A stretch of DNA of 32,029 bases from Methylibium sp. (lineage in GTDB: Bacteria; Pseudomonadota; Gammaproteobacteria; Burkholderiales; Burkholderiaceae_C). The notes below the pieces were generated by a model. That model was given only the letters and a program-made list of their open reading frames with translations, did not search any database and was not told the DNA's origin. This document shows, in pieces, positions 5,405-18,041 of the stretch. Location of the stretch: positions 1 to 32,029 of the forward strand of contig NZ_JACDCW010000040.1 in assembly GCF_013817345.1 (NCBI RefSeq). Reading direction: 5' to 3'. How positions within the stretch are numbered: the stretch's first letter is position 1; each line of letters opens with the position of its first letter. Both the position numbers and the translations under genes were made by a program.

Positions 5405-7675
5405 GTGGATAACACAAAAAAGCTTTGGGTCTATCTGGCGATTTTGTTAATCGCTTCTTTCGCCACGCTGCTGTGGACGGGCGGCGAAATCTACCGACAA
5501 GCGCCGCCCATGCCCGAGCGGGTGGTGTCGACCGACAAGAAAGTTATCTACGTTCGCGCGGACATCGAACTCGGCCGTCAGGTGTGGCAGTCGTTCGGCG
5601 GGATGCAGCTCGGCTCCATCTGGGGTCACGGCGCCTATGTAGCGCCTGACTGGAGCGCGGATTGGCTGCACCGGGAGGCGGTGGCCCTGCTCGACCTGTG
5701 GGCCAAGCGCGAGGCCGGAGCAGACAGCTACGACGACTTGTCGGCGGAGCAAAAGACGGTCTTCCAGGGTCGGCTGGAAACCAGAATCCGGGAGAACACG
5801 TTCGATCCCGAAAGCGAAACGATCACGCTCAGTGCCGACCGCGCCATTGCGATCGCCAGCGTTGCCGCCCATTACCGAAGTTTGTTCGGCAACGATCCCG
5901 CCACGGCCGGGCTGCGTGAAGCCTACGCAATGAAGAACGACACCGTGCCGGATGCGGAGCACCGTCGCGCCCTCGCTGCGTTTTTCTGGTGGACCGCTTG
6001 GGCAACGGTCACCGAGCGCCCTGGGAGCGAGATCACCTATACCAACAACTGGCCGAGCGAGCCGCTGGTCGGCAATCGACCGCCGGCGAGCTTGTTTCTT
6101 TGGTCGGCGTTCAGCGTCATCCTGCTTCTCGCCGGCATTGCGCTATTGGGTTGGCACCATGCCGTCACGGCAGGGCGCGCGGAAGAACCGCATGAAATGC
6201 CGGCCACGGATCCGATGTCGCGGGTTCAGGTCACGCCATCGATGAAGGCGGCCGCACGGTACTTCTGGGTCCTGTTGGCGATGTTTCTGTTGCAGCTCGT
6301 GCTCGGCGCCATCACGGCCCACTACCAGATCGACGGCCAGCACCTGTACGGCTTCAGTCTTTCGGAAATACTGCCCTATTCGCTCACGCGCACCTGGCAC
6401 ACCCAGTTGGCGGTTCTCTGGATAGCGACCGCCTGGCTGGCGACGGGCCTGTATATGGGGCCGGCCATCTCGGGCTACGAGCCGAAGCATCAAAGCTTGG
6501 GCGTCAACGTGCTTCTTGCCTGTCTGGTGATCATCATCGTCGGCTCTTTCGCCGGCCAATGGTTTGCAGTGATGCAGAAGTTGGGGCTGGAGCACAACTT
6601 CTGGTTCGGTCACCAGGGATGGGAGTACGCCGACGGCGGCCGTTTCTGGCAATGGTTCTTGTTCATTGGTCTGATGCTGTGGCTCGTGCTGGTCGGGCGT
6701 GCGTTGTGGCCCGCATTGCGTGCCGCGAACAAGGAATCGCGATCGCTGGTGGGACTGCTGTTCCTGTCGACCGTGGCGATCGGCCTGTTCTATGGCGCAG
6801 CGTTGCTGTGGGGCGAGCACACCCATCTATCGGCGGTCGAGTACTGGCGCTGGTGGCTGGTGCATTTGTGGGTGGAGGGGTTCTTCGAAGTCTTCGCCAC
6901 GGCAGTGCTGGCCATCATCTTCACCCGCCTGGGCCTTCTGTCCGTCAAGATCGCGACGGTCGCAGTGCTGTTCGGAACCATCGTGTTCATGGCCGGCGGG
7001 GTGCTCGGAACTTTGCATCATCTGTACTTCAGCGGTACGCCGACCGCGGTCATCGTGTTGGGTGCCAGCTTCTCCGCGCTCGAGGTCGTACCGCTCGCGT
7101 ATGTCGGTTTCGAGGCTTACGACAGGTACCGGCAAAGCTCCGCGACGCCGTGGATGTACCGCTATCGCTGGCCAGTGATGTTCTTTCTGGCGGTCGCCTT
7201 CTGGAACATCGTGGGGGCGGGGCTGTTCGGTTTCCTGATCAATCCGCCGCTGTCGCTTTATTACATGCAGGGGCTCAACCTGACCCCGTTGCACGCCCAC
7301 ACTGCTCTGTTCGGGGTGTACGGCATGCTCGGCATCGGGCTCGTGTTGTTCTGCCTGCGCGGCCTCAAGCCGGATCTGATTTGGAACGAAGGCCTCCTCA
7401 ACGTCAGCTTCTGGTCGCTGAACATCGGGCTGGCGCTGATGGGCGTGCTGACCCTTCTTCCGATCGGCACGCTGCAACTGCTGGCGGCGGTCGATCACGG
7501 CTACTGGTATGCGCGCTCGACCGAGTTCATGCAGCAACCTCTGATCGATGTTTTGGTGTGGATGCGGGTGCCGGGCGACATCATCTTCAGTGTCGGGGCT
7601 TTGACGCTCGCCTGGTTCGTGGTCGGACTTTGGTTCAGGCCGCAGCGCCGGCCCGTGTTGCAAGAAGCTGCGTGA
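5405..7675 (+). CDS. norZ: Quinol-dependent nitric oxide reductase, single-subunit qNOR
   Basis: It reduces two NO to N2O with electrons from quinol in the inner membrane, for denitrification or NO detoxification. I choose the GTG at 5405 (756 residues) because GGAG lies four bases upstream and DNTKKLWVYLAILL then opens the first span; an in-frame ATG at 5342 would add 21 unlikely residues. Residues about 30-225 form the periplasmic NorC-like domain fused to the catalytic part, which marks qNOR rather than cNOR; no haem c CXXCH motif is seen. Ligands visible are His332 (WHTQLAVLW), His487 with Glu491 and Glu495 (VHLWVEGFFEVF), His538 and His539 (LHHLYFSGTP), and His630 and His632 (LHAHTALFGVYG). 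About fourteen spans. The upstream 150 bp shows no convincing FNR, NorR or NsrR site. Confidence 0.95.
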   Translation: MDNTKKLWVYLAILLIASFATLLWTGGEIYRQAPPMPERVVSTDKKVIYVRADIELGRQVWQSFGGMQLGSIWGHGAYVAPDWSADWLHREAVALLDLWAKREAGADSYDDLSAEQKTVFQGRLETRIRENTFDPESETITLSADRAIAIASVAAHYRSLFGNDPATAGLREAYAMKNDTVPDAEHRRALAAFFWWTAWATVTERPGSEITYTNNWPSEPLVGNRPPASLFLWSAFSVILLLAGIALLGWHHAVTAGRAEEPHEMPATDPMSRVQVTPSMKAAARYFWVLLAMFLLQLVLGAITAHYQIDGQHLYGFSLSEILPYSLTRTWHTQLAVLWIATAWLATGLYMGPAISGYEPKHQSLGVNVLLACLVIIIVGSFAGQWFAVMQKLGLEHNFWFGHQGWEYADGGRFWQWFLFIGLMLWLVLVGRALWPALRAANKESRSLVGLLFLSTVAIGLFYGAALLWGEHTHLSAVEYWRWWLVHLWVEGFFEVFATAVLAIIFTRLGLLSVKIATVAVLFGTIVFMAGGVLGTLHHLYFSGTPTAVIVLGASFSALEVVPLAYVGFEAYDRYRQSSATPWMYRYRWPVMFFLAVAFWNIVGAGLFGFLINPPLSLYYMQGLNLTPLHAHTALFGVYGMLGIGLVLFCLRGLKPDLIWNEGLLNVSFWSLNIGLALMGVLTLLPIGTLQLLAAVDHGYWYARSTEFMQQPLIDVLVWMRVPGDIIFSVGALTLAWFVVGLWFRPQRRPVLQEAA

Positions 7676-10510: not shown

Positions 10511-11295
10511 GCGTCGGTGGCCGGAGGCAACGGCGGCGCCGAAGAAGGCGCTGGCGGTGCTTCGCCGCGCGCGGCGCCGACGTAGTAGCCCACGCCGCGC
10601 ACGTTCTGGATGAACTCGGGCCCCAGCTTGCGGCGCAGTTGGTGGATATAGACCGAGACCGCGTTGCTTTCGATCTCCTCGCCCCAGCCGTAGAGGCGGT
10701 CCTCGAGCTGCGCGCGCGAGAGCAGGGCGCCGGGGCGGGTGAGCAAGGCTTCGAGCACGGCGAACTCGCGCGCCGAGAGTTGCACGGGCTGGCCGTCTTT
10801 TGCGACCTGGCGGGTGGCGGGGTCGAGCGTGACGCCACCGTGCGCGAGCAGCGGCTGCGCTCTTCCCGCATGGCGCCGCAGAACGGCGCGTATGCGGGCA
10901 TTGAGCTCCTCGAACTCGAAGGGCTTGACTAGGTAGTCGTCGGCGCCGGCATCGAGGCCGGCGACGCGGTGGCCGAGCGCGTCGCGCGCGGTGATCACGA
11001 TGACCGGGGTGGCGTCGTTGCGCGCGCGCACGCTGCGCAATACGGACAGGCCTTCGCTGCCGGGCGCCTCGGTGGCTAGGCCGGGCGCGGCCGGTGAAGC
11101 GTCTGCGCCGATCGCGCGCGGGCCGCCTTCGGGCAAGCCCAGGTCGAGCAGCACCAGATCGAAACGCTCGCTGGCGAGCACCGCCTGTGCCGCCGAAGCG
11201 TCACGCACCCAGTCGACGGCGTGGCCTTCGAGCCGCAGCGCGGCGCGCAGGCTCTCGCCGATCATGCGGTCGTCTTCGACCAACAGCAAACGCAT
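10507..11295 (-). CDS. OmpR-family response regulator with an unusual insertion in the receiver domain
   Basis: A 262-residue transcription factor, partner of the kinase just downstream. The receiver keeps Asp8/Asp9, phospho-acceptor Asp51 (LVLLDLGLP), Thr102 and Lys124 (DDYLVKPFE). The winged-helix domain (about 148-245) shows LSAREFAVLEALL, SNAVSVYIHQLRRKLG and VRGVGYYVG. Between LGLP and the alpha-3 helix (GLSVLRSVRARN) there is an Ala/Pro/Gly-rich insertion of about 23 residues (about 57-80) where the family normally has only a few residues; the frame is continuous. A Pro/Ala-rich tail ends the protein, and the total is about 30-40 residues longer than usual. The cysteine-rich protein gene lies just upstream on the same strand, so metal control is conceivable. 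Confidence 0.93.
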   Translation of the reverse strand: MRLLLVEDDRMIGESLRAALRLEGHAVDWVRDASAAQAVLASERFDLVLLDLGLPEGGPRAIGADASPAAPGLATEAPGSEGLSVLRSVRARNDATPVIVITARDALGHRVAGLDAGADDYLVKPFEFEELNARIRAVLRRHAGRAQPLLAHGGVTLDPATRQVAKDGQPVQLSAREFAVLEALLTRPGALLSRAQLEDRLYGWGEEIESNAVSVYIHQLRRKLGPEFIQNVRGVGYYVGAARGEAPPAPSSAPPLPPATDA

Positions 11296-11448
11296 CGGCA
11301 GTGGCTCCGGTTCGTGGTGAACGCAAAAGCATACCGTCGGCTTTCACCCGCACGCCGCAGCACGGCAAGGGCCGTCGCGGCTCCGAGACGCAGTCGGGCG
11401 TTGAGTAGTGCGTGGCGGGAGTGATGCGGAACGGCCCGCCTCGTGCGG

Positions 11449-11820
11449 TCAGGCGACGTGCGTGCCGGCCGGCGTGCTGGCGCGCGCGGGCCGTTCGGCC
11501 ATCTGGCGGCATTCGCTCGCGCATCGCCGGCAGGCTGTGGCGCACTGCTGACAATGGTCCATCGCGTGCCGGTTGCACTCTTCGGCGCAGGCCTCGCAGA
11601 CCATGGCGCACAGCGCGCACGCGGCGCTGTCGTGGGCGCTTCCGCGCGCCATGAAACCTGCGGCCAGGCGACAAAGCTGGGCGCAGTCGATGTCGAGCGC
11701 GACACAGCGCGCCATGAGCTTGGGCTGCGGCTCGCCGAGGCAGGCGATGGCGCAGTGATCGCAGGCATCGGCGCAGGCATAGCAGGCATCGATGCAGGAG
11801 CGGTGGTGGTGAGCGGGCAT
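11449..11820 (-). CDS. Cysteine-rich four-helix-bundle copper-binding protein (Csp3/DUF326-like)
   Basis: A 123-residue protein with 19 cysteines, mostly in CxxxC and CxxC spacing along predicted helices: SCIDACYACADACDHCAIAC at the start, CALCAMVCEACAEEC in the middle and CQQCATACRRCASEC late. This matches cytosolic Csp3-type copper storage proteins, whose four-helix bundle is lined with thiols that hold many Cu(I) ions. AAGGAG lies six bases before the ATG at 11820, which fixes the start; there is no signal peptide or Tat motif, arguing for a cytosolic Csp3 rather than exported Csp1. It is encoded about 150 bp upstream of the response regulator and kinase on the same strand. Function is by family; metal binding is not shown here. 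Confidence 0.85.
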   Translation of the reverse strand: MPAHHHRSCIDACYACADACDHCAIACLGEPQPKLMARCVALDIDCAQLCRLAAGFMARGSAHDSAACALCAMVCEACAEECNRHAMDHCQQCATACRRCASECRQMAERPARASTPAGTHVA

Positions 11821-12162
11821 GAAAGGCTCCTTGTTGGGAGGCGCGACATCCGGACGGGTGGCGCAACCCTGAATGCGGCAAGGCGCGTGCCGATGGTGCG
11901 CCGTCGCTGCGCCCCAGCGCCGCGTAGGTCTACTTGCGCCGCACTCGGCGAGGCACGGCGCCATGGGGGACAGTCGTTGCAGTCAGCGACTCTCGGGTTG
12001 GGTTTGGGCGCTTGCCTCCCGAGCGAAGCCGCCACAATGTAGGCCTTGCGCGGCGATTGCTCTTGCCCGTTGCAAAGCAGCATCGGTGGCCCGCGCCGAG
12101 GAAGCGAAGCCGCCTCGCGTAACTCCCCGTCAGTCCTTCCATTTGAAAAGGCCCCCCAGCGC
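11821..12162. other. Divergent intergenic region between the Cys-rich protein and the MscS channel
   Basis: This 342-bp stretch separates two divergent genes and should contain both promoters. No clear -35/-10 pair or copper-responsive palindrome is recognisable. One imperfect inverted repeat, AGTCGTTG (11972-11979) with CAGCGACT (11984-11991), could be an operator or structure. I see no additional gene. Confidence 0.4.
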
Positions 12163-13359
12163 ATGAACGACCTGAACTTCGCCGAGACCTGGTTCGCAAC
12201 GACGACGTTGCTGGGCGTGCCGCTCACGAGCTGGGCTCTCGCCTGCGCCGCGGCGTTGGGCTTTTATCTGGTATTCACGTTCGGGCTGCGTTTTGCACTG
12301 CGGCGCGCTTCGCGCATTGCCGCCAACACCAGCAACCGCGTCGACGACACCTTGATCGAGGTGCTGAGCCGCACCAACCGCTGGCTCCTCGCGCTGGCCG
12401 CGCTGCTCATCGGCCTGAGCCTGATCGATCTGTCCGATCGCTGGAGCTCGCGTGTCGGGCAGCTCTGGTTCATTGCGCTGGCGTTGCAGTTCGCCCTGTG
12501 GGGCAACACCGCGATCCGTATTTTCCTGCGGCGCTACACCGAGCGCCATGCTTCCGCCGCGATGACGCAGGTCAGCGCCTCGGCGACGCTCATGTCATGG
12601 GGCCTGCGCACGTTGCTGTGGGCCACCGTGCTGCTGGCGATGCTGTCCAACCTGGGCGTGAACATCACCGCCTTCGTGGCCAGCCTGGGGGTGGGCGGCA
12701 TTGCGGTGGCGCTGGCGGTGCAGAACATCCTCGGCGACCTGTTCGCCTCGCTGTCCATCGCGGTGGACAAGCCCTTCGAGATCGGCGACTTCATCATCGT
12801 CAACGAAGTGATGGGCTCGGTCGAGCATGTGGGCTTGAAGACGACCCGGCTGCGCAGCCTGAGCGGCGAGCAGATCGTGATCTCGAACACCGAGCTGCTC
12901 AAGCAGGTGATCAAGAACTACAAGCGCATGGCGGAGCGGCGCATCGTCTTCACTTTCGGTGTGACCTACAGCACCACGCCCGAGCAGGCCGAGCAGATCC
13001 CGCAGATCGTCAAACGCCTCGTCGACGCCAGCGAGAAGCTGCGCTTCGACCGCGCCCACCTGCTGAAGTTCGGCGACAGCTCGCTGGACTACGAGGTCGT
13101 CTACATCGTCAAGGAGCCGGGTTTCAACGCCTACATGGACGAGCAGCAGCGCATCAACCTGGCGCTCATGCGCGAGCTGGAACAGATCGGTGTGGAGTTC
13201 GCCTTTCCAACGCGCACCGTGTACGTCATCAACGATCCGGCCGCGGACAGCGCGGAAGAGGGCGGCAACGAGAAGGAAGGAGCCGCCCACACCAGCGGCG
13301 CAGCGCCCGGCGGCAACGGCAGCAGCGAGCCTCAGCCCAGCCCGAACTCGGCCCGATAG
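12163..13359 (+). CDS. MscS-family small-conductance mechanosensitive channel
   Basis: A 398-residue inner-membrane channel that would release solutes on hypo-osmotic shock. I start at ATG 12163 (MNDLNFAETW); upstream in-frame codons do not look coding, and only a weak AAGG lies before this ATG. Spans are visible at about 19-42, 74-90, 100-120, 145-163 and 167-190. The pore-lining helix and beta-domain signature are canonical: ASLGVGGIAVALAVQNILGD followed by DLFASLSIAVDKPFEIGDFI. The cytoplasmic vestibule domain continues to about 355, ending in a low-complexity Gly/Ser/Glu tail. The five-span layout is larger than E. coli MscS (286 residues) and nearer to YnaI-like members. The 3' end overlaps the convergent gene by 28 bp. 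Confidence 0.93.
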   Translation: MNDLNFAETWFATTTLLGVPLTSWALACAAALGFYLVFTFGLRFALRRASRIAANTSNRVDDTLIEVLSRTNRWLLALAALLIGLSLIDLSDRWSSRVGQLWFIALALQFALWGNTAIRIFLRRYTERHASAAMTQVSASATLMSWGLRTLLWATVLLAMLSNLGVNITAFVASLGVGGIAVALAVQNILGDLFASLSIAVDKPFEIGDFIIVNEVMGSVEHVGLKTTRLRSLSGEQIVISNTELLKQVIKNYKRMAERRIVFTFGVTYSTTPEQAEQIPQIVKRLVDASEKLRFDRAHLLKFGDSSLDYEVVYIVKEPGFNAYMDEQQRINLALMRELEQIGVEFAFPTRTVYVINDPAADSAEEGGNEKEGAAHTSGAAPGGNGSSEPQPSPNSAR

Positions 13360-14231
13360 CGCTCGAAGCAGCGCGCGCCGCAGCGCAGGCGCATCAGGGC
13401 GCCTTCGGCAATGGCGCGCGCGCATCGCGGTTCGCTCTCCACCAGGGGGCGGATCACCTCGCGGTTCCAGTCGCGCGAATGCACGATGTCGAGCCCGGCG
13501 TGCAATTGGAAATAGCGGCGGCCCTGGGGCGAGATGCCGAGCCGCTCGAGGCCGACGTTGATCTGCGAAACGCGGCCCGGCGCGGTGAGTTCGATGACCC
13601 CCAGCGCCCCCACCGAGTGATAGGCATATCGGCGATTCGCAGCCAGCGCGAGCATCACATTGCCCAGCGCGAGCGACTCCCACACGGTCGCCTCGACAGA
13701 GGGCTCGAGCGCGAGTTCGTGCACCGCCATCTCGAGCATCGGGCCGTGCATGCCGCCGCGCTTGCCGCGGCCCATTTCGTCCCAGTAGTTGCGCGCGAGC
13801 TCCAGTTTGGGCTGGGGCGGCATGCGCAACTGGGTCAGTGCGACGAGGTCGTCGAAGCCCGCCTCGCCGGCCACTTCCTGTGTGAGGAACCAGCGCATCT
13901 GTTGCAGGTTCGCCTGCGTCGCCAACCACGGGAAAAGCGGATCGCCCTGACCCGGCCCGTTCTCCGCCAAGGCCTCGAACCAGTGCATGAACGCGTCGGG
14001 CTCGTGCGGCACCTGCAGCACCTGTTCGGCGACAGTGCGGCGTTCGTCCTCGACGAGCCGGCCTTCCTCGAGCCGCAGCGTGAACTCGTCGTCGAGGTCG
14101 CTTTGCCATTGCCCGCCGGGAAAACCAGGCAGCAAGCGGCGGCGGTTGCCTTCGGCAAGGCGGCGGTGCCGCACATCGGGCGAGAGGGGGGCCTGCATCG
14201 CAGACAGAGCATGGCGATCGGGAGCGTTCAT
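13332..14231 (-). CDS. Iron-containing redox enzyme family protein (heme-oxygenase-fold di-iron oxidase, HDO-like)
   Basis: A 299-residue protein of the Haem_oxygenas_2 / iron-containing redox enzyme family. The ATG at 14231 has GGAG about nine bases upstream; a TTG further up is less likely. Candidate di-metal ligands occur in family order: Glu119 (FLTQEVAGE), Asp151/Glu152 and His162 (NYWDEMGRGKRGGMHG), Glu214 (LGVIELT), then His244, Asp248 and His251 (LHAGLDIVHSRDW). Relatives such as UndA, BesC, SznF and CADD use a di-iron centre and O2 to oxidise small substrates, often amino acids or fatty acids; the substrate here is unknown. A methyltransferase gene ends 33 bp upstream in the same direction, so the two likely form an operon. 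The gene's 3' end overlaps the mscS-like gene by 28 bp. Confidence 0.82.
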   Translation of the reverse strand: MNAPDRHALSAMQAPLSPDVRHRRLAEGNRRRLLPGFPGGQWQSDLDDEFTLRLEEGRLVEDERRTVAEQVLQVPHEPDAFMHWFEALAENGPGQGDPLFPWLATQANLQQMRWFLTQEVAGEAGFDDLVALTQLRMPPQPKLELARNYWDEMGRGKRGGMHGPMLEMAVHELALEPSVEATVWESLALGNVMLALAANRRYAYHSVGALGVIELTAPGRVSQINVGLERLGISPQGRRYFQLHAGLDIVHSRDWNREVIRPLVESEPRCARAIAEGALMRLRCGARCFERYRAEFGLG

Positions 14232-14264
14232 CGAAATTTTCTCCAACAACAAAAAGGAAAGGGC

Positions 14265-15314
14265 TCAGCGGACTTGCACGCTGAGGCCGGCGACGGCCAG
14301 ACGCTCGACGTCGCCGTAGCCGGGTTGCGCCAGCTCGGCGCCGAACACGTCGGGGTCGATCTCGGCGTAGTCGTAGACCGCGCCTCGGCTCGCAGCGGCC
14401 TCGGTCAGTCGCGGCTGCAGGGCCTGCCAGAGAAGATCGACGCCGGCAACGACCGGTGCTGCCGTGTAGAGGATCAGCCGGCCGCCCGGCGCCAGCCGTT
14501 GCAGCGACTCGTCCACGATGCGCAGCGCCAGGCCTGTGCCGAGCCGCCCGCCGCCGTGGCGATAGGCGCGCTCCTTTGCGTCGATCAGATAGGGCGGATT
14601 GGCGAGCACCAGATCGACGGGCTCGTCGACGGCGGCCAGCACGTCGCTGTGGCGGCACTCGCAGTGTTCCAGGCCGGCAAGCTGCGCGTTCACTGCTGCC
14701 AGGCGCAGCGCTTCTGGGTTGATGTCGGTGAAAAGCACCCGCGCGGGCAACTCATGTCCGATCAGGCGGGCGGCCACGATGCCGCCAGCGCCGCTTCCGC
14801 AGCCGAGATCCACCACGGTGCAGGGTGCGGTGCGGGGGGTCTGCGATCCCCGGCCATGTTTCGCGAGCACGCGCTCGATCAGGGCGGTAAAGCGGTAGGT
14901 GTCCGGGCCGAAAAATACCGCGTCCGCCTGCGTCGTCGGCCACGCAGAATGCGCAAGCAGGGTGTCTGAAAAGCTCGAGAAGCGAACGCGGCTTCGCCAC
15001 AGGGCACCGCCGCCGGCCACGGGTTCCAGCGCGCCGGCCTCGCGCATCAAAGCGAGCAACGGCGCAGGCAGCACCGCAGTGTCGGAAGCGTTGAAAGGCC
15101 GGCTCCATCCGAATACACCGCGCAGATCGTGTGCGCGCTCGTTGCCGGGCCGGGCATTCACGAGGGCCTGTGTGTCAGGCGTCGGGCAAACCCATCGGTA
15201 GCCGGTGCCGATCAATGCACGACCGAGGGCGAGCAGCGCATCGTCCGCGTCCCGTGCCGCCGGCGGCGCGATGCGTGGCCCGGTTTCTTGCCGGGCCGAC
15301 TTTTCCAGAATCAT
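14265..15314 (-). CDS. Class I SAM-dependent methyltransferase (PrmC/HemK-like, NPPY motif)
   Basis: A 349-residue protein from ATG 15314; GGGAAG lies about ten bases upstream, and an ATG six codons earlier (15332) is an alternative. The C-terminal half is a Rossmann methyltransferase: VVDLGCGSGAGG (about 167-178) binds SAM, FTDINPEALRLAAVNAQ is the acidic loop, and LANPPYL (about 237-243) is the NPPY motif of enzymes methylating amide or amino nitrogens (PrmC, N6-adenine, RlmG/RsmC types). The first 160 residues, with FGWSRPF and a VFFGPDTYRFTALIE segment, resemble the N-terminal domain of small-molecule or RNA methyltransferases in this group. It is followed after 33 bp by the di-iron oxidase gene, hinting at a joint modification pathway. 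Substrate unknown. Confidence 0.85.
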   Translation of the reverse strand: MILEKSARQETGPRIAPPAARDADDALLALGRALIGTGYRWVCPTPDTQALVNARPGNERAHDLRGVFGWSRPFNASDTAVLPAPLLALMREAGALEPVAGGGALWRSRVRFSSFSDTLLAHSAWPTTQADAVFFGPDTYRFTALIERVLAKHGRGSQTPRTAPCTVVDLGCGSGAGGIVAARLIGHELPARVLFTDINPEALRLAAVNAQLAGLEHCECRHSDVLAAVDEPVDLVLANPPYLIDAKERAYRHGGGRLGTGLALRIVDESLQRLAPGGRLILYTAAPVVAGVDLLWQALQPRLTEAAASRGAVYDYAEIDPDVFGAELAQPGYGDVERLAVAGLSVQVR

Positions 15315-15418
15315 TGCCAACGTACTTCCCATCTTGTTGCGGGAAGGGGGCAATCGGCATACCGGCCGCGGTTCGAGGAGTGTTTTGCCTCCCAGGCGGC
15401 GGGCTGCAGACCGAAAAG

Positions 15419-16468
15419 TTACCGGGTGGCCTCTTCGATCTTCTCGCTCGCTTCGTTGTGCTCGGCGGCGTCGGCCTGCGGCTCTTCCTGTGTGTGCGCC
15501 GCCTGCGGCTCCAGGCTCAGCTCGATGAACACCGGGAAATGGTCGGAGCCGAAAAAGCCCAACCGTTGGAAGGCAACCAGCCGGAAATCGTTGGAGTGGA
15601 AGAAGTGGTCCAGCGGAAAGCGGATCAGCCGGTGCTTGGCGTTGAAGGTGTTGAAAAAGCCCCGGCCGACCCGCGGGTCGAGCAGGCCGCTGATCTGCTT
15701 GAAGAGGTCGTTGGTGTGCGACCAAGCCACATCGTTGAGGTCGCCGAACACGACCACGGGGCTGGGGTTGCGCTTGATTTCCCGGCCGACGATGAGCATT
15801 TCGGCATCGCGCTCCGTCGAACGGTCGTTCTCCGTGGGCGAGGGCGGGCGCGGGTGCATGCAATGCAGTTGCACCGTCTGCCCGGAGCGCAGGCGTACGC
15901 GCGCGTGGATCGACGGCACCCCCTCCTCGACGAGGAAAGCCACGCTCGGCTCCTGCAGCTCGAGCCGTGAATACAGCAGCATGCCGTAGGTGTTGTCCTG
16001 CGGCTGGTGCACTTGGTGCGGATGGCTGAGGGCGAATTCTTTCAACTGGCCTTGCCACCACGTGTCGGTCTCGAGCGCGAGGATCAGGTCCGGGTCGGCC
16101 TCGCGAATGATGTCCTTCAGGCGCTCGGCTTGATGGTTCGACTGCAGCACGTTGGCGGACAGCAGGCTCAGCGTCGATCCGGGCTTCGGCTCGGCGCACT
16201 GCTCGACTTCCTTTCGCGCCAGACGCGTGTAGGGATACATGCGCCTGGCCTGCAGCCCCAGGCTGGCCAGCAAAGCGAGCAGGAACGAAGTCTCGGCGAT
16301 GCCCTGCACGCCTAGCGCCGCACGGGCCGCGGCCACGATCAGCAGCACGAAGCTGATCTGCAGACGCGGGAAATCGAACACCCGAATCCACCAGGCCTCG
16401 AAGCGCAGCAGCGGCAGCAGCGTGGCGGCGACCATCACGCCGCCGACGATGAGCAGGGCCGTTTCCAC
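15419..16468 (-). CDS. Membrane-anchored endonuclease/exonuclease/phosphatase (EEP) family protein
   Basis: About 349 residues with three hydrophobic N-terminal spans followed by an EEP hydrolase domain. The catalytic set is visible: Asn in LLSANVLQSN, Glu in LALETDTWW, His in MHPRPPSP, Asp/Asn in FGDLNDVAW and the Asp-His pair in FGSDHFPVF. Such proteins cleave phosphodiesters, but membrane-bound bacterial members with this layout are of unknown substrate. I place the start at GTG 16468, eight bases after the upstream phosphatidyltransferase stop; an earlier in-frame ATG (16561) would lengthen it into that gene by 85 bp. The tight spacing suggests co-transcription with the phospholipid gene and perhaps a role in lipid or envelope phosphate metabolism. 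The C terminus is Glu/Ala-rich. Confidence 0.85.
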   Translation of the reverse strand: METALLIVGGVMVAATLLPLLRFEAWWIRVFDFPRLQISFVLLIVAAARAALGVQGIAETSFLLALLASLGLQARRMYPYTRLARKEVEQCAEPKPGSTLSLLSANVLQSNHQAERLKDIIREADPDLILALETDTWWQGQLKEFALSHPHQVHQPQDNTYGMLLYSRLELQEPSVAFLVEEGVPSIHARVRLRSGQTVQLHCMHPRPPSPTENDRSTERDAEMLIVGREIKRNPSPVVVFGDLNDVAWSHTNDLFKQISGLLDPRVGRGFFNTFNAKHRLIRFPLDHFFHSNDFRLVAFQRLGFFGSDHFPVFIELSLEPQAAHTQEEPQADAAEHNEASEKIEEATR

Positions 16469-16476
16469 GAGGGGGC

Positions 16477-17118
16477 TCAGAGCTTGGGAATGCGCAGGGT
16501 CTTGCTGATCATCAGGCTGCCCGACAGCACGAACACGAGTGCGAACGGATGCAGCGTCCATGGGCCCAGCAGCATGACGCCACCGTAGATGTCATCGCCC
16601 AGCCGCCCTTGCCAGGCGGCCACGGCGAGCAGCAGGCTCAAGAGCACGGTCGTCGGAATGGGTGTGCCCTCGAAGTAAGACACCTTGCCTTCGTCGCCGG
16701 AGAGGCTCTCTGCGGTGACGTTGTAGCGTGCCAAGCGGCTCACGCCGCAGCAGACGAAGTAGATCAACGCCAGCATGTCCCAGCCGCCGCGCAGGCCGGC
16801 CGCGAAGGCCAGCGTGGCGGGGCCGACGCCGAAGGAAACGATGTCGGCGAGTGAATCGAGTTCGCGACCGAGCGGCGAGTGCTGATGACGCCAGCGCGCG
16901 ATGCGGCCGTCGAACACGTCGAACAGCAGCGCCAGCGGCGCGAGCAGGGCGGCGGTGAAGAAGTGCAGGGGCGACTGGCCGCCGACGAACATCATTGCGA
17001 AGAACACCGAGCCCATGCCGCAGGCCGCGTTTGCCAGGGTGAAGAAGTCCGCCAGATGGAAGCCGCGGATCATCGTGAAATGGCGGCGTTCGGGGTTCGG
17101 TGTCGGGCGCATCGTCAT
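16477..17118 (-). CDS. CDP-alcohol phosphatidyltransferase family protein (PssA-like)
   Basis: A 213-residue inner-membrane enzyme that transfers a phosphatidyl group from CDP-diacylglycerol to an alcohol, possibly serine. The signature D-G-x2-A-R-x8-G-x3-D-x3-D is complete, from DGRIARWRHQ through SPLGRELDSLAD, preceded by LLFDVF. About six to seven hydrophobic spans follow, beginning with GFHLADFFTLANAACG. The start at 17118 has GAGAAAG just upstream; an ATG two codons later also fits. It is followed within 8 bp by the EEP protein gene. The N-terminal sequence differs from the usual betaproteobacterial PssA (which has a LPNLFT motif), so phosphatidylserine synthase is a guess; a different acceptor alcohol is possible. 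Confidence 0.82.
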   Translation of the reverse strand: MTMRPTPNPERRHFTMIRGFHLADFFTLANAACGMGSVFFAMMFVGGQSPLHFFTAALLAPLALLFDVFDGRIARWRHQHSPLGRELDSLADIVSFGVGPATLAFAAGLRGGWDMLALIYFVCCGVSRLARYNVTAESLSGDEGKVSYFEGTPIPTTVLLSLLLAVAAWQGRLGDDIYGGVMLLGPWTLHPFALVFVLSGSLMISKTLRIPKL

Positions 17119-17228
17119 TTCTTTCTCGAATGAAATGGGCAGCTTCGTACCCACCGTATTGTTGGCACAAGCATGCAAGGTAGCCCTGGCAGCCAGCGTC
17201 TCGGCACCGGCGCGCAGCGAAGGAGCCC

Positions 17229-17480
17229 TCAAGTCGGCGCGTGATCGTCGGGCGGCTCGGTCTTCTTGACCCCCCGCATGTTGAGCGCCGCCAGGCAGAC
17301 CTGCAAGGCGATCAACGCGTAGGCGCCGGTGTGCCAGCCCCACACGACCCACAGCACGTTGCTGAGCAGGAAAAGCCAGAAACCGATGCGCCGCTTGAAC
17401 GGCCGCTGAGAGGCGATCAACCAGGCCGCCGCGACGGTGACAAGCATCGCCGGCCACTGCATCAAGTCGAGCACATCCAT
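17229..17480 (-). CDS. Small hypothetical membrane protein, 83 residues
   Basis: I do not recognise a named family. The sequence reads as three short hydrophobic spans (about 7-24, 33-48 and 52-68) with a positive RPFKRR loop between the first two, and a charged tail KKTEPPDDHAPT. The pattern RRIGFWLFLLSNVLWVVWGW resembles small uncharacterised membrane proteins common in proteobacteria, related in layout to one repeat of PnuC or SWEET-like transporters. The ATG at 17480 lacks a strong ribosome site (GGGAG is 15 bases away). It lies 110 bp upstream of the phosphatidyltransferase gene on the same strand and may start that operon. Confidence 0.65.
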   Translation of the reverse strand: MDVLDLMQWPAMLVTVAAAWLIASQRPFKRRIGFWLFLLSNVLWVVWGWHTGAYALIALQVCLAALNMRGVKKTEPPDDHAPT

Positions 17481-17613
17481 CTGTGGTTGTCTGGCTCCCG
17501 AATCGGGTGGAAGGGATGCTTGCGGCGCAGCAACGAGCGGCCGACGGCGAAGCCATGCGCCGCTATCGGCAACGGCCTTGTCCGTGCCTCTTGCTGCCGC
17601 GCTTGCTACGGCT

Positions 17614-17718
17614 CTAGTACCGGCGCTGGCTCGAGCGAACGCCGCGGGCCAGGAAGGAACGGTAAAGCTTTGCGGCAAGCCCTGATGTGATCGCGTAAAC
17701 GAGCAGTCTGCGCAGCAT
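17614..17718 (-). CDS. Possible 34-residue basic micro-protein
   Basis: ATG at 17718 preceded by GGAG at seven bases' distance; the peptide begins MLRRLLVYAITSGLAAK and ends in a basic RSSQRRY tail. It would be a single amphipathic or membrane-inserted helix with Arg-rich ends. Nothing else supports it, and it has no recognised family. It could equally be chance in GC-rich DNA. Confidence 0.35.
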   Translation of the reverse strand: MLRRLLVYAITSGLAAKLYRSFLARGVRSSQRRY

Positions 17719-17918
17719 GGGGCGGCTCCGTTGAAGGTGAGTGGGATGCGCGCTGCAAGCAAACGGCGTTCCTGGCCCTTGCAGTTGCAGACGATGGGCA
17801 GGGTCACCCCCCCGCGATGCGTGCCCTCGAGTGCGGGGCGCGTTGCCATCGCGCCGTCACGCTTGCGCGCTAAGGTGACTTCACGCGCAGCCAAGCCTGC
17901 GCGCCGGAGCTCAACACC

Positions 17919-18041
17919 ATGGCCACGCAATTGCAAACGACTGCGCTGTATCGCCGACTCGGCCGGCGCACCCGGCTGCCCACCGTCTGCCCGACACGCC
18001 CGAGCTACCTGCAGCGGCTCCTGTCGCTGTTCTCGCCCTAG
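17919..18041 (+). CDS. Possible 40-residue basic micro-protein
   Basis: ATG at 17919 with GGAG about nine bases upstream; the frame has strongly GC-biased third positions like neighbouring genes. The peptide begins MATQLQTTALYRRLGRRTR and ends LLSLFSP. It is Arg- and Leu-rich, with no family recognised. A chance frame cannot be excluded. Confidence 0.25.
   Translation: MATQLQTTALYRRLGRRTRLPTVCPTRPSYLQRLLSLFSP

What the first reader, a model, noticed from the sequence alone, without database searches (positions are those of the whole stretch)
13332..15314. Methyltransferase plus heme-oxygenase-fold di-iron oxidase pair: a possible unknown small-molecule pathway
A PrmC/NPPY-type methyltransferase and an HDO-like iron enzyme lie 33 bp apart on one strand with no other genes. 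HDO enzymes often perform unusual N-oxygenation or C-C cleavage, and several known ones act in natural product pathways with tailoring methyltransferases. The full ligand set (Glu119, Glu152, His162, Glu214, His244, Asp248, His251) seems intact. I know of no described function for this two-gene unit.
Basis: partly seen in the sequence, partly recalled or inferred. Interest (0 to 1): 0.6.

Follow-up and report, generated by a model that had tools for sequence, protein, structure and literature searches.

The report
Methyltransferase and iron N-oxygenase gene pair
Two neighbouring genes, a methyltransferase and an iron-dependent oxygenase, travel together across distant bacteria, in some of them beside genes for an arginine-rich storage polymer, and may make a small protective molecule whose identity is still unknown.

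Summary
In detail: an intact heme-oxygenase-like diiron enzyme (HDO, 13332-14231 -, seven ligands) follows a methyltransferase (MT, 14265-15314 -) by 33 bp. The pair is real: MT lies near HDO in 25 of the 80 best related loci, from four proteobacterial classes, 16 times as MT then HDO within 250 bp. In two even class samples (276 and 289 genomes) MT is in 4 and 5 genomes, always beside an HDO: this one in seven, a DtpC-family HDO in two. HDO's nearest solved relatives are N-oxygenases (HrmI; then RohS, SznF by fold). MT is not PrmC; its predicted full-length fold is closest to the natural-product N-methyltransferases AerE and GenN. Recurrent partners in subsets of loci are cyanophycin synthetase and cyanophycinase, a PurD-like ligase, and a dimethylargininase/arginine-dihydrolase-like enzyme; mostly in sphingomonads HDO carries EcfG-type stress promoters. 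DtpC is a published desiccation factor. Best reading: N-methylation and N-oxygenation of an arginine- or lysine-derived compound for stress protection. Pairing is shown; substrate, chemistry and product are inferred. A new variant of a known kind, worth testing.

The parts
13332..14231 (-). HDO: heme-oxygenase-like diiron oxygenase, 299 aa, predicted N-oxygenase; ligands E119, E152, H162, E214, H244, D248, H251
   Evidence: PF14518 E 5.3e-41; HrmI E 2.6e-37 by sequence, top fold match TMq 0.87; ligands invariant in 42 rows; AF2 pLDDT 91.7
14232..14264 (-). 33-bp gap between MT and HDO with a GGAG box 8 nt before the HDO ATG
   Evidence: read; one terminator-like match at 14285-14264, no more than in shuffles (1 found, mean 1.4)
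14265..15314 (-). MT: class I SAM methyltransferase, 349 aa, NPPY (N239-Y242), with a conserved N-terminal part (about residues 27-150); predicted N-methyltransferase
   Evidence: PF05175 E 2.5e-14; below PrmC/L3/RsmC cut-offs; fold nearest AerE and GenN; A2 alignment of 22
15419..16561 (-). Neighbour: endonuclease/exonuclease/phosphatase-family protein, same strand, 104 bp upstream of MT; among the 80 loci seen only in the close relative L002
   Evidence: PF03372 E 2.4e-34; synteny
12046..13359 (+). Neighbour: MscS-type channel, convergent, overlapping the HDO 3' end by 28 bp; a related channel gene lies 0.8 kb from HDO in L013 and 2.5 kb in L135
   Evidence: PF00924 E 6.5e-19

Best explanation
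MT and HDO are two tailoring enzymes of one stress-linked small-molecule pathway. MT moves a methyl group from SAM to a nitrogen of an amino-acid-derived substrate; HDO uses a diiron site and O2 to oxygenate a nitrogen of the same compound (to the hydroxylamine, nitroso or nitro level). The substrate most likely comes from arginine (or lysine). In lineages with a fuller unit an ATP-grasp ligase (cyanophycin synthetase, a PurD-like ligase, or a third ligase-like protein) joins it to an amino acid. The product helps cells survive drying or oxidative stress. SHOWN: gene integrity, ligands, conservation, linkage, co-occurrence, EcfG-type motifs before HDO (mostly sphingomonads); folds are predicted. 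INFERRED: N-methylation, N-oxygenation, substrate, ligation, protection. Odds by step: same pathway 0.85; HDO is an N-oxygenase 0.65; MT is an N-methyltransferase of a small substrate 0.6; arginine- or lysine-derived 0.4; stress protection 0.5 (lowered from 0.55 in my draft, as the motif is nearly confined to sphingomonads).
For: Linkage: MT within the fetched locus in 25 of 80 HDO loci: 16 as MT then HDO on one strand with a gap under 250 bp, one on the same strand 945 bp apart with a third gene between, eight on opposite strands 62-3998 bp apart. Co-occurrence: in 289 genomes of the class of G023, HDO in 5 and MT in 5, the same five (four of them gave rows to the alignments used); in 276 genomes of the window's class, HDO in 3, MT in 4, both in 2 (Fisher p 4.7e-4), and the two others with MT have a DtpC-type HDO directly before it. 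N-oxygenase: HrmI by sequence and fold, then RohS and SznF by fold; E-x9-H and H-x3-D-x2-H kept. MT: AerE/GenN fold. Partners: cphA, isoaspartyl peptidase, cyanophycinase, MT, HDO in one row in Sphingobium yanoikuyae pKN1 (synthetase and cyanophycinase pass NCBIfam cut-offs) and in L051 and L058; CphA in 7 of 42 HDO genomes, in 6 of the 7 within 7 kb of an HDO or MT copy; PurD-like ligase in 13 of 80; dimethylargininase/arginine-dihydrolase-like gene in 12 of 80, and fused to MT in a Legionella sainthelensi plasmid. Stress: EcfG-type motif before 13 of 48 HDO genes against 22 of 530 other genes of the same loci, p 6.7e-7; KatE-type catalase in 9 of 80 loci; DtpC (PMC13232832).
Against: No substrate or product is known. 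In the window the ligase, cyanophycin and guanidine-enzyme genes are absent; in its genome the PurD-like partner is not found (only matches at E 5e-13, which would fit ordinary PurD) nor the guanidine enzyme (an empty answer without a positive control). 12 of 37 HDO genomes have no MT at E 1e-20, among them Hydrocarboniphaga effusa and a Solimonas with long contigs; 14 of the 25 with MT were already known to have it from the loci. The ten Corallococcus-type loci with the guanidine enzyme have no MT in the locus. 35 of 42 HDO genomes show no CphA at E 1e-80. The EcfG motif is absent from the caulobacter-type loci and from MT and ligase genes (0 of 10, 0 of 3). The A. baumannii chromosome with DtpC has no MT. 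HrmI, the nearest solved enzyme, acts on lysine. HDOs with the same ligands can differ in chemistry (PMC13108848, section 11). By sequence profile MT's first PDB match is PrmC/HemK, not AerE.
Confidence: 0.45

Rival explanations
1. HDO is itself a protective factor of the DtpC kind (it lowers O2 or peroxide, or binds iron, in dried or stressed cells) and makes no metabolite; MT modifies something else in the stress response.
For: DtpC, an HDO that needs E143, H153 and H232, limits H2O2 in dried A. baumannii and is co-transcribed with katE (PMC13232832, abstract and section 6); the chromosome searched here has no MT. Our HDO has KatE-type catalase in 9 of 80 loci and EcfG-type motifs.
Against: DtpC belongs to a different, longer HDO family (469 aa; hhalign probability 76.8 against ours). 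Constant pairing with a methyltransferase and ligases near it are hard to explain for a scavenger; [quoted passage not shown]
Confidence: 0.2
2. The pair modifies cyanophycin or its dipeptides (beta-Asp-Arg/Lys): MT methylates and HDO oxygenates polymer side chains or recycled dipeptides.
For: Row of cphA, isoaspartyl peptidase, cyanophycinase, MT, HDO in S. yanoikuyae pKN1 and in L051, L058; both genes flank a cyanophycin cluster in L132; HDO beside cphA in L004 and beside cyanophycinase in L046; the window's own genome has a DtpC-type HDO beside a cyanophycinase-like frame and the start of cphA, and a degraded MT copy beside cphA-like pieces.
Against: 35 of 42 HDO genomes show no CphA at E 1e-80, so the pair mostly occurs without the polymer; a PurD-like ligase is found in other loci.
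Confidence: 0.15
3. HrmI-like lysine N-oxygenation: HDO makes N6-hydroxylysine or 6-nitronorleucine and MT caps the product.
For: HrmI is nearest by sequence (34% over 232 aa) and fold (TMq 0.87), with all ligand positions and many residues around them kept.
Against: Invariant residues of this family (G122, E123, R155, E276) differ in HrmI (L164, D165, N197, V320), which hints at another substrate; which HrmI residues hold lysine was not available to me. Whether hormaomycin-type genes lie nearby was not searched.
Confidence: 0.15
4. MT is a translation-factor or ribosome methylase (PrmC-like) and its nearness to HDO is incidental.
For: PrmC-type catalytic domain (TIGR03534 E 9.1e-19; first PDB match of the family profile is HemK/PrmC, E 1.4e-16).
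Against: Far below PrmC/L3/RsmC cut-offs; rare (4 of 276 and 5 of 289 genomes at E 1e-40 and 1e-60), and beside an HDO in all nine; AerE/GenN fold.
Confidence: 0.05

Closest known systems
HrmI / BelK (lysine side-chain N-oxygenases)
   Same: Closest solved HDO by sequence and predicted fold; all seven ligand positions align
   Different: 34% identity over 232 aa; differing invariant residues; here paired with an MT
SznE-SznF (streptozotocin; SznF N-oxygenates a methylarginine, PMC13108848 section 8; SznE recalled)
   Same: Logic of a methyltransferase plus an HDO N-oxygenase; E-x9-H and H-x3-D-x2-H align with SznF
   Different: No cupin domain here; SznE was not compared
RohS (N-oxygenase of azomycin biosynthesis; substrate recalled)
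   Same: Next-best fold match after HrmI
   Different: 14-17% identity in the fold alignment
DtpC-KatE of Acinetobacter
   Same: HDO in a desiccation/oxidative-stress setting beside KatE; DtpC-type HDOs sit directly before this MT family in two other genomes
   Different: Longer HDO family; no MT in the A. baumannii chromosome searched
AerE / GenN N-methyltransferases
   Same: Closest fold to the MT model; AerE methylates asparagine side-chain amides (PMC11285071, one passage)
   Different: 16-21% identity, TMq 0.53-0.65; RiPP precursors or aminoglycoside genes were not searched for
MboA-type HDO plus ATP-grasp clusters (mangotoxin)
   Same: HDO near an ATP-grasp ligase; 1447 such HDO sequences in at least 25 cluster types are reported (PMC13185094, section 7)
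   Different: Alkyne-forming HDO; whether our units are among the 25 types could not be seen (supplement not available)

Membership tests
HDO superfamily (PF14518) | Pfam profile above cut-off | tested here: met
   140.8 bits against 28.9
HDO superfamily (PF14518) | 3 His and 3-4 carboxylate ligands on the heme-oxygenase fold | tested here: met
   seven residues invariant in 42 of 42 rows; AF2 pLDDT 91.7, HrmI top match
HDO superfamily (PF14518) | metal binding and O2-dependent catalysis | not testable with these tools
   needs protein
HrmI/BelK lysine N-oxygenases | lysine-binding pocket conserved | tested here: inconclusive
   many aligned residues kept, G122, E123, R155, E276 differ; the HrmI lysine contacts were not available
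HrmI/BelK lysine N-oxygenases | lysine side-chain amine to nitro activity | not testable with these tools
   needs assay
SznF | C-terminal cupin domain | tested here: not met
   299 aa, only PF14518 found
DtpC family (long HDO) | about 440-470 aa with a conserved C-terminal part | tested here: not met
   299 aa; hhalign 76.8% probability over 189 columns. A member is elsewhere in this genome (C113)
PrmC / HemK release-factor methyltransferases | equivalog cut-off | tested here: not met
   67.9 bits against 199.1
AerE / GenN N-methyltransferases | same fold over the full length | tested here: inconclusive
   best Foldseek matches, TMq 0.53-0.65, but rmsd 5.6-7.7
Cyanophycin gene cluster | cphA and cyanophycinase next to the pair | tested here: not met
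   absent from the window's flanks. Elsewhere met for both genes in L051, L058, L132, L144 and for HDO alone in L004 and L046

The most novel reading that the evidence does not exclude
MT, HDO and an ATP-grasp ligase form a widespread, so far undescribed biosynthetic module that turns arginine (from or into cyanophycin) into an N-methylated, N-oxygenated guanidine-type stress metabolite, and DtpC-type HDOs are a second branch of the same system, so that the desiccation factor of Acinetobacter works by making a small molecule.
Probability: 0.25. Interest if true: 0.85.

Novelty: new variant of a known kind. Interest (0 to 1): 0.62.

Why it matters
About a dozen of more than 10,000 HDOs have a validated function (PMC13108848, section 4). 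Here one conserved HDO subfamily gets a regular partner, a predicted reaction type, a candidate substrate class and a stress setting, and is tied through its methyltransferase to the DtpC family, whose protective mechanism is an open question. It also points to a possible role of cyanophycin genes beyond nitrogen storage. The S. yanoikuyae plasmid gene row makes the question testable with a few genes in E. coli.

Tried and rejected
PrmC-type housekeeping methylase: rejected on curated cut-offs and rarity, though the catalytic domain is of that kind. CADD/4-aminobenzoate synthase or PqqC/TenA relationship: only remote matches. The upstream phosphatase gene and the MscS channel as core parts: both kept in the close relative L002, the channel also in two Panacagrimonas loci, so left as neighbours. 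An RNA element: no Rfam match at gathering scores in 11000-18000. Promoter or terminator in 13250-15500: nothing above shuffles. PurD-like partner or guanidine enzyme elsewhere in the window's genome: not found. The third PF14518 match of this genome (C6, 33 bits) was fetched but not pursued.

Dropped rows and limits. Of 375 related loci the tool kept the best 80. Searches used 37 genomes behind 38 of the 80 loci, chosen by me and not at random (14 of the 37 were known to have MT, 7 to have the PurD-like ligase); one search used 42 genomes. A1, A2 and A3 used 11, 22 and 42 sequences, chosen by me. The neighbour count includes short contigs. Whole-genome searches score only the best candidates of a first look in large samples, so weak matches can be missed. 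Gene calls for the EcfG test come from a simple codon-model script of mine, so starts are approximate; the EcfG consensus is recalled; 'other' genes are neighbours and may include stress genes; of the 13 hits, all but L062 are sphingomonad or unnamed loci, and L051 and L058 are near-copies. Counts are not phylogenetically independent. The names AgrE and ArgZ for Alr4995 and Sll1336 are recalled (NCBIfam also names ArgZ).

Literature: no paper linking this MT to an HDO, or an HDO to cyanophycin, appeared in the listings of searches (at most 20 papers listed each; 74, 56, 58 and 43,943 papers matched in the first four); subscription papers and supplements were not available. Papers seen: PMC13108848 (abstract, sections 4, 6, 8, 11), PMC13185094 (abstract, section 7), PMC10206079 (listing and passages), PMC13232832 (abstract, passages, sections 3 and 6, first part of 10), PMC11285071 (one passage); PMC13133933 is not held.
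Full report
What is there. The window holds an intact HDO gene (13332-14231, minus, 299 aa) and, 33 bp upstream on the same strand, a methyltransferase gene (14265-15314, 349 aa). HDO matches PF14518 at E 5.3e-41. The flanks are an endonuclease/phosphatase-family gene 104 bp upstream and a convergent MscS-type channel gene overlapping the HDO end by 28 bp. The window is one contig of a 4.14 Mb, 207-contig genome; the nearest named locus is a Methylibium MAG (L002, 97% for HDO).

What HDO resembles. By sequence the only strong solved relative is HrmI (E 2.6e-37 alone, 1.1e-45 as a profile; SznF follows at 9e-6). HrmI is 34% identical over 232 residues, with all seven ligand positions kept. An AlphaFold2 model (pLDDT 91.7) finds HrmI first (TMq 0.87), then the N-oxygenases RohS and SznF, then FlcD, BesC and CADD. 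HrmI oxidises the side-chain amine of lysine to nitro and SznF oxygenates a methylarginine (PMC13108848, section 8). N-oxygenation is therefore the best guess for the reaction. Against assuming lysine: the invariant G122, E123, R155 and E276 differ in HrmI. Against any firm guess: HDOs with the same ligands can differ in chemistry (PMC13108848, section 11).

What MT resembles. The catalytic half is of the MTS/PrmC kind with NPPY, but scores are far below the curated cut-offs of PrmC (67.9 against 199.1 bits), L3 (40.2 against 229.7) and RsmC (27.3 against 295). The family has conserved stretches outside the catalytic core. The AlphaFold2 model (pLDDT 89.7) is closest to AerE and GenN; PrmC comes thirteenth. 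Told against this: a profile search by sequence ranks HemK/PrmC first (E 1.4e-16) and AerE later (1.7e-12), and the fold matches are moderate (TMq 0.53-0.65). AerE methylates asparagine side-chain amides (PMC11285071, one passage).

The pair is conserved. Of 375 related HDO loci the 80 best were kept. MT lies in 25 of these 80: 16 as MT then HDO on one strand within 250 bp, one on the same strand 945 bp apart, eight on opposite strands 62 to 3998 bp apart. Apart from HDO and frames overlapping it, MT is the most frequent neighbour family. Among 37 HDO genomes searched whole, 25 have MT; 14 of these were known from the loci, and of the other 23 genomes 11 have it. In an even sample of 276 genomes of the window's class HDO is in 3 and MT in 4, with both in 2 (Fisher p 4.7e-4); the window's genome is one of the two, and the third HDO (G065) is a distant one of 29% identity. 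In the two genomes with MT but without this HDO, MT is directly preceded by another PF14518-type protein (24 bp apart in L136, 1 bp overlap in L137). In an even sample of 289 genomes of the class of G023, a Sphingopyxis MAG, HDO is in 5 and MT in 5, the same five, each with the two genes within about 2 kb. Four of these five, the centre included, had given rows to the alignments, so only one is new; the informative part is that none of the other 284 has either. Plasmid records show the same: MT next to HDO in six Komagataeibacter records, a Variovorax replicon and S. yanoikuyae pKN1.

Counter-evidence on pairing. Twelve of 37 HDO genomes have no MT at E 1e-20. In several sphingomonads and caulobacters MT is elsewhere in the genome. 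In Novosphingobium sp. ES2-1 HDO and MT are on different plasmid records. In Sphingobium sp. TomTYG74 MT sits beside an amino-acid symporter gene on a record that is not among the HDO matches.

Partners. (1) A PurD-like ATP-grasp protein lies in 13 of 80 loci, 12 of them with MT. It aligns with GARS domains and PurD structures but scores 90.9 bits against a PurD cut-off of 288. Nine of 37 HDO genomes have it at E below 1e-180. (2) Cyanophycin genes: in L051 (Sphingopyxis), L058 (unnamed) and S. yanoikuyae pKN1 (L144) the order is cphA, isoaspartyl peptidase, cyanophycinase, MT, HDO, symporter on one strand. The pKN1 synthetase and cyanophycinase pass the NCBIfam cut-offs (1048 against 850; 275.8 against 126.6). 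In L132 MT and HDO flank such a cluster; in L004 HDO is beside cphA (whose frame holds one stop) and in L046 beside cyanophycinase, both without MT in the locus. CphA at E 1e-80 is in 7 of 42 HDO genomes, and in 6 of the 7 it is within 7 kb of an HDO or MT copy (in G001 the degraded MT copy); the exception is G013. (3) A guanidine-modifying enzyme, between dimethylargininase (146 bits, cut-off 300) and arginine dihydrolase (105 bits, cut-off 450) and nearest in the PDB to Alr4995 and Sll1336, lies in 12 of 80 loci, ten of them Corallococcus-type without MT in the locus. It is fused to the N-terminus of MT in a Legionella sainthelensi plasmid, where HDO follows after 26 bp; the copy in L040 is a distant one (26% to that of L146). 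(4) A third ligase-like protein (weak ATP-grasp evidence: RimK E 0.0038, cyanophycin synthase E 0.0011) is next to MT in L054, L143 and L145. Cyanophycin has an aspartate backbone with arginine side chains (PMC10206079, abstract as listed), so partners 2 and 3 both point to arginine.

Stress setting. In the alphaproteobacterial loci an EcfG-type motif (GGAAC-N15-18-[CGT]GTT, consensus recalled) lies 25-130 bp before 13 of 48 HDO genes against 22 of 530 other genes in the same loci (p 6.7e-7); three altered motifs give 0, 0 and 1 of 48; in the other loci it is 0 of 28 HDO genes. The hits are sphingomonad or unnamed loci plus one Rhodospirillales locus; no caulobacter-type locus has it, and MT (0 of 10) and the PurD-like ligase (0 of 3) do not either. 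A wider window gave 15 of 49 against 26 of 670, with MT 3 of 19. KatE-type catalase lies in 9 of 80 loci, directly before MT and HDO in L003.

Tie to DtpC. The second HDO type is the DtpC family: with the ATG start at 5926, the A. baumannii protein in L152 has E143, H153 and H232 as published, and katE starts 54 bp after it, as described (PMC13232832, a passage of section 5 and section 6). The window's own genome carries a DtpC-type gene on contig C113, followed by a cyanophycinase-like frame and the start of a cyanophycin synthetase, and on C104 a degraded second MT beside cphA-like pieces. So two HDO families share the MT partner and, in some genomes, cyanophycin surroundings. But the A. baumannii chromosome has no MT at E 1e-20, so DtpC there works without it.

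Mechanism proposed. MT N-methylates and HDO N-oxygenates an amino-acid-derived compound, most likely a guanidine or amine from arginine or lysine, joined by an ATP-grasp ligase where one is present; the product protects stressed cells. Pairing and setting rest on the calls above; every chemical step is inferred. The closest known logic is SznE/SznF; it is not a member, as the cupin domain is missing.

Novelty. HDO is a new subfamily member of a known superfamily. The MT-HDO unit with cyanophycin, ligase and guanidine-enzyme partners was not found in the listings of searches, with the limits stated. HDO-ATP-grasp clusters as such are known (PMC13185094, section 7). I therefore rate it a new variant of a known kind.

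Noticed in passing
G000 contig C113 (L150:3538-6874): DtpC-type long HDO followed by a cyanophycinase-like frame and the start of a cyanophycin synthetase, at a contig end.
   Followed up: partly
G000 contig C104 (L141:5421-7250) and L142: A second, degraded copy of the methyltransferase beside cyanophycin-synthetase-like pieces; a transposase-like ORF (by eye) is near it in L141; the related MAG shows a similarly broken match.
   Followed up: partly
window 11449-11964 (-): Cys-rich DUF326 protein with a weak match (25.1 bits, cut-off 100) to Csp1 copper storage proteins.
   Followed up: no
L013:6026-7207, L135:12138-13433, window 12046-13359: A related MscS-type channel gene lies near HDO in two Panacagrimonas genomes as well as in the window.
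   Followed up: no
L146:10867-14502: DNA ligase D and Ku genes downstream of HDO on a Legionella sainthelensi plasmid; a LigD-like frame (by eye) also lies in L077.
   Followed up: no
L156:5869-8114: In Sphingobium sp. TomTYG74 the MT gene overlaps an amino acid:proton symporter gene; an SDF-type symporter also follows HDO in L144, L051, L058 and L022. The two were not compared.
   Followed up: no
NZ_CP064203.1, NZ_CP077849.1, NZ_CP104448.1: A. baumannii records of 3.7-4.1 Mb, by size whole chromosomes, are filed as plasmids in the plasmid collection.
   Followed up: no
L138:9033-9857: A much more distant HDO (29% identity) in a 1.4 Mb genome (G065) that has no MT match.
   Followed up: no
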